A DNA stretch of 64,000 nt from a virus. A model generated the notes under the pieces. The model saw only the letters and a program-made list of their open reading frames with translations, made no database searches and had not been told where the DNA came from. The DNA lies in the IMG/VR virus record IMGVR_UViG_3300025110_000009, positions 16,535 to 80,534 of that record. One strand, written 5' to 3'. The translations under genes and the position numbers were made by a program. Shown one piece after another: positions 60,253 through 64,000 of this stretch (the first letter of the stretch is position 1; each line of letters starts with the position of its first letter).

Positions 60253-60538
60253 CTTTATCATCCTCATTAAAATTTATTTTTGCTTGGCTTAATTGTGCCT
60301 TTATTACTATTGCTATTTGTTCTGATAAAACATAATCTACGTTTGCCTTAAAGAACTCACCAAATGTTCTACCATCTCCGGGGATTTCCTTTGTCCAAAC
60401 TAAATCTAGTTTTTCCTTTGCATCCAATTCATCGTATAACTCTTCTTGGATTTGTTCTATTAATATGTTCACTTGACTAATTTCATCAAATGTCCATGTC
60501 TTTCCTTTCAATTTCTCTATTACTTTTTCATCTATCAT
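60170..60538 (-). CDS. Small charged protein between nuclease and primase
   Basis: Start ATG 60538 at an ATGA overlap with the Cas4-like gene. About 122 residues, with helical body (MIDEKVIEKLKGKTWTFDEI, then ILIEQIQEELYDELDAKEKL) and a Lys/Ser-rich tail (KRATNEKTSSKKS). No known fold. It overlaps the primase by 83 bases, which is unusual for this operon, so the C-terminal tail may have been extended. Confidence 0.55.
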   Translation of the reverse strand: MIDEKVIEKLKGKTWTFDEISQVNILIEQIQEELYDELDAKEKLDLVWTKEIPGDGRTFGEFFKANVDYVLSEQIAIVIKAQLSQAKINFNEDDKDEISERSVGGKPPAKRATNEKTSSKKS

Positions 60539-61386
60539 ATAAATTCCGCCTTTTGTGCCGCAGGGCATAATGGCTTGAAACTACACCACTCGCAAGTTTT
60601 GTAGTAATATTTTTCTGGGAACTCGTTTCTCTCATAAGCATAAATTAACTTTGCAATTCCTTTCATAACTGCATTCATGCTTGTCTTCTTAACAGGTTCT
60701 ACTTGGATATAATTAGATACAGGATAATACCATCCCCAATGTGTTATTTCTTGTCTCTCTATTCCCTTATCTGCTAAGTATTCATCAGTAGCATTATCCA
60801 TTAGTAACTTATAGAAAGACATTTCTGCTCTCATACCTGTGAGTTTATAATCTTTCCAAGGGCCTGTCTTTAATTCTATAGGAATATAATTATTTCCCTG
60901 TCTAAACATTCTATCAATAATACCTTGCAAATGCACAGTATAGTCTCGCAATAAAATTGCCTTAGAGTTTATATCATGTGGTATTGTTATTTGTGCATCT
61001 AACATAACCTCATTGATTACTGGCAAATAATCATTTAGTTCTCCTCTATCTCTAGCATCAACAAAACGTTGTGCTTCAAAACTTGACATTGTTTTATAAA
61101 TGTCACCATATTCGTCTACTGGATGTAGGCCAATATTATATTGAACCAGTTCATCGTAGGATAAATTTTCTGCTTTCTTCACATCGAAAATATCAAAAAA
61201 TTCTTCTCTCGTATTATGAACTACTGTTCCTTTTATCATTGCTTCCGAAGTATCTTGAGGTAATCTCTCGATATACGAAAATTCATATTTCTTAGGACAC
61301 CACTTAAAAGAACCATATGAAGATTTTGTTATCTTCAATATAGGTTCATCTTCTTGCGGGTTCCATTGGTATGTGTATTCTTTCAT
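60535..61386 (-). CDS. Cas4/RecB-like PD-(D/E)XK nuclease
   Basis: Start ATG 61386 with GGTGGTAA upstream, though an in-frame ATG at 61398 overlapping the PolB end is possible. Motifs: SYGSFKWCPKKYEFSYIERL with an N-terminal Cys, GTVVHNTREEFF, GIIDRMFRQG then YIPIELKTG (D...ExK), a QxxxY-like SFYKLLMD, and a C-terminal CEWCSFKPLCP. The Cys set (one N-terminal and three C-terminal) fits a Cas4-type 4Fe-4S cluster. Not linked to CRISPR here; in viruses such nucleases are thought to act in replication and recombination. Confidence 0.85.
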   Translation of the reverse strand: MKEYTYQWNPQEDEPILKITKSSYGSFKWCPKKYEFSYIERLPQDTSEAMIKGTVVHNTREEFFDIFDVKKAENLSYDELVQYNIGLHPVDEYGDIYKTMSSFEAQRFVDARDRGELNDYLPVINEVMLDAQITIPHDINSKAILLRDYTVHLQGIIDRMFRQGNNYIPIELKTGPWKDYKLTGMRAEMSFYKLLMDNATDEYLADKGIERQEITHWGWYYPVSNYIQVEPVKKTSMNAVMKGIAKLIYAYERNEFPEKYYYKTCEWCSFKPLCPAAQKAEFI

Positions 61387-61388
61387 TT

Positions 61389-62294
61389 TTACCACCATTC
61401 ATCTAATGTTTTCTGATTTATATCGAACTTTATTTTATCTAAGTCCCACCCCATCGCTCGATAAATCGGGTCGGCTTTTTTCACCAAAGCATTACCATAG
61501 TGATGATAATCTGGTGTAGTTGCTATCTCACCTAATCTTTGTAAGGTGGGTGCTGAAATGTATCTAGGTCTTTTCCATACATTTGTTATTGGGTTTTTAT
61601 AATTAGGTCTAGTTGGTATATCGGATACTCTAATATACAAATAAGAATCTTCTATAGGTTCTGAAAAATCCTGCTGATTATACCAAATCAATCCTTCTGT
61701 CCCTTGCGAGATAGAAGGTCTTTTTCCTTCTAAGGTTGTCAAAGAATCTTCATGCCCACACTTTACACAGTAATTAACTTGTGAATCTATTAGTTGTTTT
61801 ACAGTAGATTCCTTATTACATTTACTACATTTGAAGGTAAGTCTTTCAGGCCTATATCTACTTCTGTTTGATAATTTTTTCAACTCAATGTCGCCTGAGA
61901 TTACTTTGTTATACCATAGTTTGATAAAAGAAGTTACTTCCGCTTCTGTCTTTTTCTCAACCCACATTCTCAATACTGACATTTGTATAAACTTTTCAAT
62001 CTCAGATATTGCTACTCTCTTTGCCACAAAGCCTGTCATAACAAACTCAGGTTCATCTAAATATTCTCCATCTTTCCAATTTATCAATCCTGCATTTCTG
62101 TTCTTAGTTGTTCCTACTCCAAGGGTTTGAAAGTATTTTTCATGTTCTAATTTAATAGGATGTTCTTCTAGTCCTAAGACATTAGGAAACTCTTGCCGCA
62201 CATGGGTATTCAATAGTGCTAAAATTTCTTCTGTTTGTTCCATTGGCATTTGCACATAAATAGAATCTGTGTGTCCATATACTAATTTCATCAT
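61389..62294 (-). CDS. polB: DNA polymerase B, C-terminal part (motif C, thumb)
   Basis: Begins MMKLVYGHTDSIYV, so motif C (YGHTDS, with His in place of the first Asp of YGDTDS) is at residues 6-11. The rest is palm end and thumb: YFQTLGVGTTKNRNAGLINW, then a CxxC...CxxC zinc-like insert (CSKCNKESTVKQLID, VNYCVKCGHED) and a C-terminal RPRYISAP segment. About 301 residues. ATG 62294 forms an ATGA overlap with the small membrane gene; GTG 62300 is an alternative. It must work with the N-terminal part, which lies 464 bases upstream. Confidence 0.85.
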   Translation of the reverse strand: MMKLVYGHTDSIYVQMPMEQTEEILALLNTHVRQEFPNVLGLEEHPIKLEHEKYFQTLGVGTTKNRNAGLINWKDGEYLDEPEFVMTGFVAKRVAISEIEKFIQMSVLRMWVEKKTEAEVTSFIKLWYNKVISGDIELKKLSNRSRYRPERLTFKCSKCNKESTVKQLIDSQVNYCVKCGHEDSLTTLEGKRPSISQGTEGLIWYNQQDFSEPIEDSYLYIRVSDIPTRPNYKNPITNVWKRPRYISAPTLQRLGEIATTPDYHHYGNALVKKADPIYRAMGWDLDKIKFDINQKTLDEWW

Positions 62295-62422
62295 ATCCAC
62301 CCAAATACTTCTATCATAACAGCAGAAGCAATAACTATCTTTACAAAACTAAAGACCGTTCTTGCTAATGCAAGGCTCGCAAAATTATCTTGCGCCCACA
62401 TTTCTATTTCTCCTCTTGTCAT
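62291..62422 (-). CDS. Small single-TM protein between PolB halves
   Basis: 43 residues. Overlaps the upstream gene at ATGA and the PolB C-part start in the same way. Hydrophobic core LARTVFSFVKIVIASAVMIE. Below usual length limits. A membrane peptide embedded in a replication operon; role unknown. Confidence 0.5.
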   Translation of the reverse strand: MTRGEIEMWAQDNFASLALARTVFSFVKIVIASAVMIEVFGWI

Positions 62423-62619
62423 TCTTCTTCCTCATTAATAGCGTTGAGGCTTCCAATAAAAAGTTCCCCATCTAATCGCATTTCAATATATAATTGTCTA
62501 GGAAATTCTTCTGTCTTATTACGAATCTCAGTTTGTAATATTCTACCCTTTCCGATACAATTATTTCTATCAGAATAACGAGCAAAATTTATCCATTTTC
62601 TAATCAAGTTTTCTTTCAT
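62419..62619 (-). CDS. Small basic protein between PolB halves
   Basis: I chose ATG 62619, eight bases after GGAGA; an in-frame start at 62667 lies inside the zinc-finger gene. About 66 residues: basic helix (KENLIRKWINFARYSDR) then beta (RQLYIEMRLDGELFIGSLNA) and an acidic tail. No known fold. It overlaps the upstream gene by 20 bases. Confidence 0.5.
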   Translation of the reverse strand: MKENLIRKWINFARYSDRNNCIGKGRILQTEIRNKTEEFPRQLYIEMRLDGELFIGSLNAINEEEE

Positions 62620-62761
62620 TTTCTTCTCTCCGTTCTTTTCTTTTCCATTCCAAGTAACACTTACCACAACGATGATAATTATTTGTTATCGCTCTTGTAA
62701 GTGCGCCGCATATACTACACTTTTTGGTGTATCGGGTTTTATCTCTTTGATGTCCTGTCAT
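62600..62761 (-). CDS. Small zinc-finger protein between PolB halves
   Basis: 53 residues. Its ATG overlaps the stop of the PolB N-part (ATGA). CSICG (15-19) and CGKCY (32-36) form a zinc knuckle pair like those of HNH or ribbon proteins, followed by a basic helix (EWKRKERREENERK). No HNH catalytic residues are evident, although a decayed homing endonuclease remnant cannot be excluded. Confidence 0.55.
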   Translation of the reverse strand: MTGHQRDKTRYTKKCSICGALTRAITNNYHRCGKCYLEWKRKERREENERKLD

Positions 62762-64000
62762 AGTTCCATCACCTTAAATGCTGCACTTCTAATTGCTTTT
62801 CTCGCACCTGCTGTAATACTAGCAGCCATATCAATGTCAGCCCATGAAAAACCTTGGTAGCCAATGATACCATAAAAAGATGCCATCAATCTTTTAACTG
62901 CCATTTGGTTATTATACCATTTGTAATACTCATCATCTGTCTTGGCTTCCTTCATATTTTTCTTATACTCATTACGAAGTTCTTTTAATTCAAGGACAGC
63001 CTTCGGCAACATACCTAGTTTATCTGTTTTATAGTAGAGCATATTGACTTCATCCTCATCACTAAAATCTCTAGGAGTTAAAATATTTATACCAAATTCA
63101 GTTTCTTCAGAAGACTTGGTTTCCCAACTTATGTTGAGTGCTACAGTAATTGAAGGATACAGACCTGCGAAATCAAACGCAGCAACATTTTCATGTAATC
63201 CAAATGTTCCTTCAACAGAAGGGTCATAAATCATGGCCCCTTGATAATCTATCTTTGGCCCCTCTTTTCCTGTTGGGGCTTTCCAATCAGCGTTTCTCAT
63301 AAAATATATGCTACCCATATTGCTTGCATAAAAACACGCATCGAATGGTGCTATTAGTAGTCGCTGTAAAGCAAGGATAGACTCCGATAGATAATTTTTC
63401 TCATCTATCTTTACAAGCAACTCAACATCTTTCTTAGCATAGTCCATATAAGTCTGCGATTCTTCTAACCATGCCTTAGCGAAAAACTCATTTTTATCTG
63501 GGAACTTTTCACTCACCATTTTCTTTTCACCTAGAACCATTTCTGCTACATAATCCAATGCCATAGAAGGGAGTGTTCCTCTTTGTGAGTCGTTCCATTG
63601 TCTTTCAAATGCCACATCTAAATTCAATAAAATTCTTCCTCTAACGGGTTGTTCTATTGGTGTATAATGTGATACTGCCTTTGATAACTTTAGTTCTCCT
63701 GCTCGGTTATCAAAATATATTCCCTTCACTTCGTTGTAAGGAGAAATTTTTCTAGGGTCTATTCCGTTTGCTAGAAGTCTTTCAATAAGTTTAGGTAAAT
63801 CGAACTTAGACCCGAACCATGAAATCATCATATCGGGGTCGCGAGTATTCATCCATTGGATAAAATTCTCAAGCATCTCTTTTTCTGATTCATGTCGCCA
63901 TGTTGTGTCAGAATAATCCCCTACTGCGGTAGGAGGAAACCAATGAAAGTTATTCATGGTTTTTGAATGGTTATCATAAACTACTAACGCAGTTATCATA
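62758..64000 (-). CDS. polB: DNA polymerase B, N-terminal part (exonuclease, motifs A and B), 5' partial
   Basis: The gene continues past the right window edge, so Exo I is missing. Visible: Exo II ISWFGSKFDLPKL (the usual Asn of NxxxFD replaced by Phe), Exo III YMDYAKKDVELL, motif A FDFAGLYPSI, motif B KRLMASFYGIIGY (Asn of KxxxNSxYG replaced by Ala). It stops at AFKVMEL immediately before motif C, which is encoded in a separate gene. No intein motif or splice-like sequence occurs at the end. This makes it a natural split of family B polymerase. Confidence 0.9.
   Translation of the reverse strand, partial: MITALVVYDNHSKTMNNFHWFPPTAVGDYSDTTWRHESEKEMLENFIQWMNTRDPDMMISWFGSKFDLPKLIERLLANGIDPRKISPYNEVKGIYFDNRAGELKLSKAVSHYTPIEQPVRGRILLNLDVAFERQWNDSQRGTLPSMALDYVAEMVLGEKKMVSEKFPDKNEFFAKAWLEESQTYMDYAKKDVELLVKIDEKNYLSESILALQRLLIAPFDACFYASNMGSIYFMRNADWKAPTGKEGPKIDYQGAMIYDPSVEGTFGLHENVAAFDFAGLYPSITVALNISWETKSSEETEFGINILTPRDFSDEDEVNMLYYKTDKLGMLPKAVLELKELRNEYKKNMKEAKTDDEYYKWYNNQMAVKRLMASFYGIIGYQGFSWADIDMAASITAGARKAIRSAAFKVMEL

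What the first reader, a model, noticed from the sequence alone, without database searches (positions are those of the whole stretch)
61389..64000. Family B DNA polymerase split between motifs B and C with three tiny genes in the gap
One gene carries Exo II/III, motif A and motif B and stops at AFKVMEL; another starts MMKLVYGHTDS with motif C and thumb. The two join without loss. Between them are a zinc-finger protein, a basic protein and a one-TM protein, all linked by overlapping start/stop codons. Splits elsewhere in archaeal PolB are known, some with split inteins, but here no intein motif is visible. The break sits in the catalytic palm, so the halves must assemble precisely; the small genes could assist.
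Basis: seen in the sequence. Interest (0 to 1): 0.8.

Follow-up and report, generated by a model that had tools for sequence, protein, structure and literature searches.

The report
Archaeal virus DNA polymerase in pieces
A family of ocean viruses that probably infect archaea makes its DNA-copying enzyme as two separate proteins, cut right next to the active site, and the cut has become a parking place for dozens of tiny genes that come and go while the two enzyme halves always stay.

Summary
The PolB gene breaks after ...AFKVMEL, three tiny genes follow, and a second gene starts MMKLVYGHTDS. It is not an assembly error: two independent contigs 99-100% identical show it, and so do all 84 distinct relatives in one clade of IMG/VR viruses. 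A sister clade keeps PolB whole (AQELGYKVIYGHTDS), so the split arose once and was never undone in this sample. The break maps to a three-residue turn between the long palm helix and the motif-C strand. No intein, Rfam intron or readable bypass fits. Both halves carry their own ribosome-binding and start signals and are under purifying selection, so the enzyme most likely works as a non-covalent two-chain polymerase. The small genes are probably not assembly helpers: three lineages have no insert at all, gene content turns over freely, and the window's families also occur elsewhere in the operon. The gap is the main insertion site of the replication operon (-4 to 1948 bp) and holds HNH, GIY-YIG, MazF-like, zinc and one-TM genes. 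Split PolB is a known kind, and ICTV already labels PolB-NTD/CTD in the magrovirus Aobingvirus. The new parts are the exact site, its single origin, and the gene island inside the polymerase.

The parts
62758..63999 (-). PolB N-half (exonuclease II/III, palm 1 with motif A, fingers with motif B, long palm helix); 5' part lies beyond the record end
   Evidence: full length 553 aa in L004
63151..63174 (-). motif A, DFAGLYPS
   Evidence: column mapping
62869..62907 (-). motif B, QMAVKRLMASFYG (Asn of the usual NSxYG replaced by Ala)
62758..62761 (-). ATGA overlap: stop of the N-half and start of the first small gene; the split point
   Evidence: the same spot is broken in 84 distinct relatives
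62600..62761 (-). 53-aa CxxC...CxxC zinc-finger-like protein; family of 13 proteins in 11 loci, mostly in the PolB gap
   Evidence: weak Pfam and PHROG hits only
62419..62619 (-). 66-aa ORF of unknown function, shared only with the near-identical L003/L004
62291..62422 (-). 43-aa one-TM protein; family found in the gap of 14-17 loci, under purifying selection (dN/dS about 0.14)
61389..62294 (-). PolB C-half (motif C hairpin, rest of palm, thumb, zinc ribbon)
62262..62279 (-). motif C, YGHTDS (first Asp replaced by His)
61749..61829 (-). zinc-ribbon insertion CxxC...CxxC in the C-half
   Evidence: absent from the YAHTDS subclade
60535..61398 (-). next operon gene, PD-(D/E)XK nuclease, overlapping the C-half end

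Best explanation
This is a B-family replicative DNA polymerase of a magrovirus-like tailed virus whose gene was permanently cut in two once, in the ancestor of a large clade. Two polypeptides (about 555 and 300 aa) are made from one polycistronic message by start-stop coupled translation. They fold together without splicing into one polymerase, the cut falling in the turn between the long palm helix and the motif-C strand. The gap is a tolerated insertion site that repeatedly gains and loses tiny coupled genes, among them nuclease genes, which are passengers of the operon and not polymerase subunits. Shown by sequence: the split, its site, its single origin, the coupling signals, the turnover. 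Inferred: assembly into an active two-chain enzyme. More speculative: that a free-standing endonuclease of HNH or GIY-YIG type caused or spread the split.
For: (1) 84 split and 10 unsplit distinct relatives; the split clade is monophyletic (SH-aLRT 99) beside an unsplit sister clade, with an unsplit halovirus PolB as outgroup, and one change explains it. (2) Exo motifs and motifs A, B and C recur across the split members; dN/dS about 0.16 for both halves. (3) All 104 split C-halves start at the same residue; 176 of 330 gene junctions in the gap are exactly -4 (ATGA type); the gap is 99.5% coding at the median. (4) Ribosome-binding-like motifs lie in 80 of 84 N-half tails (background 22%) and before 66 of 84 C-halves (background 18%). 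(5) Structure model of an unsplit homologue (pLDDT 82, best PDB match KOD polymerase, E 1.9e-38): helix 534-557, turn 558-560, motif-C strand 561-566; the split falls in the turn. (6) The PolB gap exceeds 100 bp in 78 of 84, against 25/82, 11/75, 1/74, 13/69 and 1/62 at other operon junctions. (7) Precedent: split gp43A/43B of Aeromonas phage 25 co-purify and are active (PMC2988022).
Against: No protein or transcript data. The model is of an unsplit relative; the two-chain complex was not modelled. In the C-half model alone the first 11 residues, motif C included, are of low confidence, which fits a need for the N-half but does not prove it. Motif C reads YGHTDS and motif B lacks its Asn, so activity is not certain, although the unsplit sisters share the His. 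The endonuclease origin is circumstantial.
Confidence: 0.85

Rival explanations
1. The small genes between the halves are needed for the polymerase: chaperones, bridging subunits or a membrane tether that assist the two chains.
For: They are co-translated with the halves. Zinc-type genes occur in 43 of 84 gaps and TM-type genes in 52 of 84, and some families are under strong purifying selection.
Against: Three lineages have no insert. Families change between clades. Window-type zinc and TM genes also lie downstream, outside the gap, in L128 and L008 (both) and L031, L202, L203 (TM).
Confidence: 0.07
2. The parts are joined after transcription, by intron splicing, by a split intein or by ribosomal bypass/frameshift.
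For: Inteins and introns are common in PolB genes; the pol-c intein site YGD|TDS lies only 7 residues away (PMC549080).
Against: No Rfam hit; no intein domain in the gap ORFs tested; the residue at the break is Met and not Cys/Ser/Thr; stop and start codons are kept in all members; gaps vary from -4 to 1948 nt and are filled with coding genes.
Confidence: 0.04
3. A free-standing homing endonuclease inserted near motif C caused the split, and later endonucleases still use the site, dragging cargo genes with them. (Compatible with the best explanation: it concerns the origin, not the working of the enzyme.)
For: Unrelated nuclease genes sit in gaps: HNH in L043 and GIY-YIG/MUG113 in L057 by Pfam, HNH-like zinc proteins in L027 and L194 by eye only. 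In three near-identical genome pairs the difference begins at or within a few bases of the N-half stop and one partner has the nuclease (L040/L043, L024/L027, L056/L057). The unsplit sister clade has an HNH gene directly behind PolB in all 7 readable loci. Synonymous sites flanking the junction are the two most conserved windows of 38, in the split clade only. Same idea as T4-like phages (PMC2988022).
Against: Most gaps hold no nuclease. Ribosome-binding and start signals can explain part of the synonymous conservation. Apparent recombinants L064 and L038 could be assembly chimaeras: a 42-nt exact match at the N-half end links the possible parents of L064.
Confidence: 0.4
4. Sequencing or assembly artefact that removed a continuous frame.
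For: The window is metagenomic, and a few relatives do show single frameshifts (L037 in the N-half, L142).
Against: Same split in independent contigs and about 84 distinct lineages, with different inserts and conserved start and stop codons.
Confidence: 0.01

Closest known systems
PolB-NTD/PolB-CTD of Aobingvirus yangshanense (Aoguangviridae, order Magrovirales)
   Same: Tailed virus of marine archaea, about 90 kb, two opposite gene modules; ICTV figure legend labels PolB as N- and C-terminal domains (PMC10768690)
   Different: The text does not discuss the split, its site, its inserts or its evolution; the record ON649702 was not in the collections, so the break could not be compared
Split gp43 (43/43B) of Aeromonas phages 44RR and 25
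   Same: Virus-encoded PolB from two genes, with a homing endonuclease in the break in phage 25; halves co-purify and are active (PMC2988022)
   Different: In 44RR the split lies between motifs A and B (498 + about 391 aa), with no tiny-gene island
Split PolB3 of Methanobacteriales
   Same: Archaeal PolB in two genes (PMC4104785)
   Different: Cellular enzyme, attributed to faulty intein excision; exact break not compared here
Nanoarchaeum equitans PolB (NEQ068/NEQ528)
   Same: Split close to motif C
   Different: Broken at YGD|TDS with a trans-splicing split intein (PMC549080); here the break is 7 residues upstream and has no intein
NrdA of Aeromonas phage Aeh1 split by mobE
   Same: Genes-in-pieces enzyme that keeps function (described in PMC2988022)
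   Different: Different enzyme, single insertion

Membership tests
Family B DNA polymerase (PF00136) | profile match and polymerase motifs A, B, C with exonuclease motifs | tested here: met
   Pfam over the curated cut-off for both halves; motifs seen in the alignments, with His in motif C and Ala in motif B
Magrovirales PolB | direct match to a classified magrovirus record | not testable with these tools
   ON649702 and OR863078 not held; inferred from marine origin, size, opposite gene modules, halovirus relatives, ligase, portal and capsid genes and the ICTV description
Genes-in-pieces PolB (T4-like 43A/43B kind) | two separate coding regions that together hold one complete PolB, without loss | tested here: met
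Genes-in-pieces PolB (T4-like 43A/43B kind) | halves associate and polymerise | not testable with these tools
   needs protein work
Genes-in-pieces PolB (T4-like 43A/43B kind) | homing endonuclease associated with the break | tested here: inconclusive
   none in the window; nuclease genes in the gap of several relatives
Split-intein PolB (N. equitans kind) | intein halves on both fragments and break at the pol-c site | tested here: not met
   break 7 residues upstream; no intein domain; Met at the junction
Group I/II intron in PolB | intron RNA family in the gap | tested here: not met
   no Rfam match in the window or four loci

The most novel reading that the evidence does not exclude
The break inside an essential polymerase is a maintained cargo bay: nuclease genes and linked micro-genes enter by homing or recombination at the conserved palm-coding junction, and being lodged between two indispensable halves they are hard to lose. 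The polymerase has become locked into the two-chain state, since even insert-free members were never seen to re-fuse.
Probability: 0.3. Interest if true: 0.68.

Novelty: new variant of a known kind. Interest (0 to 1): 0.5.

Why it matters
It gives a natural, clade-wide experiment in splitting a replicative polymerase next to its catalytic aspartate, with an unsplit sister group for comparison. It makes testable how gene fission becomes irreversible and how tiny viral genes and nucleases colonise essential genes. It also warns that annotation pipelines will miscount PolB in magroviruses, where PolB is used as a marker gene.

Tried and rejected
Intein (no domain, wrong residue, wrong site) and intron (no Rfam hit) were rejected. 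Assembly error was rejected from many relatives. The apparent 62% N / 100% C mismatch of L142/L144 turned out to be a frameshift in L142. A direct-repeat cassette model (each small gene ending with a copy of the N-half 3' end) looked striking in L027 and L057 but is mostly explained by shared ribosome-binding plus ATGA signals: mean match 11.7 of 24 against 10.5 for other operon genes. Recombination at the junction (L057/L064, L038/L040) was seen but left open because chimaeric assembly is possible. The genome-contig scan gave one hit, a virus contig binned with a Maricaulis MAG. The C-half found no hit in the annotated phage collection; the N-half matched haloviruses and T4-like phages at about 27%.

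Full report
The window is positions 16535-80534 of an 80,534-bp virus record, so the finding lies at the record's very end. Pfam puts the two halves at adjoining parts of DNA_pol_B. The missing N-terminus, with Exo I, is present in a 99-100% identical relative, L004. Portal, prohead protease, capsid, tail tube and ligase genes and the two opposite gene modules fit the published description of magroviruses, tailed viruses linked to Poseidoniales (PMC10768690). That assignment is inference, because no classified magrovirus record was available.

Relatives. Four protein scans of IMG/VR brought 25, 57, 80 (of 442) and 63 loci. After removing duplicates there are 84 split and 10 unsplit magrovirus-like polymerases, plus one halovirus outgroup. 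The split clade and the unsplit clade are sisters; one change accounts for the split. The outgroup is very distant, so the exact root is less certain than the two clades, but unsplit PolB is the general state. Degenerate DNA patterns covering a fused or nearly fused junction found 12 stretches in the whole collection: seven unbroken, all in the unsplit clade, and five insert-free splits. No re-fusion was seen; the patterns allowed only the Ala codons GCA (12 hits) and GCT (none), so this is a sample.

The site. Unsplit: AFKAQELGYKVIYGHTDS. Split: AFKVMEL* then MKLVYGHTDS. The C-half starts exactly seven residues before TDS in all 104 sequences, and the N-half stops 5-11 residues after AAF in 82 of 84. 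In an AlphaFold2 model of the unsplit L074 (pLDDT 82.3; closest to KOD polymerase) the break lies in the turn 558-560 between helix 534-557 and the motif-C strand 561-566. This is not the pol-c intein site YGD|TDS used by N. equitans and Mimivirus, nor the A/B break of Aeromonas phage 44RR.

Why two chains and no splicing. No Rfam match, no intein domain. The gap varies from -4 to 1948 nt and is coding over 99.5% of its length at the median. Ribosome-binding-like motifs occur in 80 of 84 N-half tails against 22% of control windows, and before 66 of 84 C-halves against 18%. Both halves evolve under purifying selection, dN/dS about 0.16. A non-covalent two-chain enzyme is therefore the best reading, by analogy with phage 25 gp43A/43B, which co-purify and are active (PMC2988022). 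Assembly itself has not been shown here.

The gap. Among conserved neighbours in the operon the PolB gap is by far the longest and most variable: median 410 bp and over 100 bp in 78 of 84, against 25/82, 11/75, 1/74, 13/69 and 1/62 at the other junctions. It holds 246 ORFs in 84 representatives: zinc micro-proteins, one-TM micro-proteins, winged-helix-like proteins (by eye), MazF/PemK-like proteins (L124, L125), HNH (L043) and GIY-YIG/MUG113 (L057) by Pfam, and HNH-like zinc proteins (L027, L194) by eye, which Pfam did not confirm. Most families are seen almost only in the gap, but the window's own zinc and TM families also sit 0.9-2.3 kb downstream of the C-half in other genomes: both in L128 and L008, the TM gene in L031, L202 and L203. 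With three insert-free lineages, this argues that the small genes are passengers.

Origin. Three near-identical genome pairs differ by a nuclease-bearing segment that starts at or within a few bases of the N-half stop. The unsplit clade carries an HNH gene directly behind PolB in all seven readable loci. In the split clade only, the two 20-codon windows flanking the junction have the highest synonymous conservation of 38 windows (ratio 1.55 and 1.57 against a mean of 1.18; z about 2.7). All this fits homing endonucleases using the junction, as in T4-like phages, but the ribosome-binding and start signals explain part of the last point and possible chimaeric assemblies cloud the recombinants. 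I give this origin 0.4.

Novelty. Split PolB is a known kind, and the ICTV profile of Aoguangviridae labels PolB-NTD/CTD, so the split in magroviruses has been seen before. The library could not show the 2017 and 2023 magrovirus papers, which may say more. What I did not find described is the exact site, the single origin with an unsplit sister clade, and the gene island inside the polymerase.

Noticed in passing
window 62262-62279 and all relatives: Motif C reads Y(G/A)HTDS, with His for the first Asp, in all 94 magrovirus-like PolBs, split and unsplit, where the halovirus outgroup has YGDTDS.
   Followed up: partly
window 62869-62907 and split relatives: Motif B has lost its Asn (KRLMASFYG) in the split clade, while the unsplit sister clade keeps it (KRxxNAxYG).
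   Followed up: no
L074, L075, L076, L164, L167, L171, L175, directly after PolB: A conserved HNH-type protein gene follows PolB immediately in the unsplit clade.
   Followed up: partly
L124:4380-4721 and L125:1738-2079: PemK/MazF-like genes sit between the polymerase halves.
   Followed up: no
L003/L004 gap; L024 gap; L009:9212; L134:2645: A short W-x-Q-T-S-G-T-G motif recurs in small ORFs of distant relatives and resembles the P-loop of the operon's helicase/primase-like protein; the window lacks this stretch (about 45 bp) of L004.
   Followed up: partly
flanks of the split, about 20-40 codons on each side: Synonymous sites are unusually conserved on both sides of the break in the split clade only.
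   Followed up: partly
L225 (NZMJ01000151.1): A magrovirus-like contig with the split PolB is binned in a Maricaulis (bacterial) MAG, probably a binning error.
   Followed up: no
L057/L064 and L038/L040: Nearly identical up to the N-half stop and divergent after it: recombination at the junction or chimaeric assembly.
   Followed up: partly
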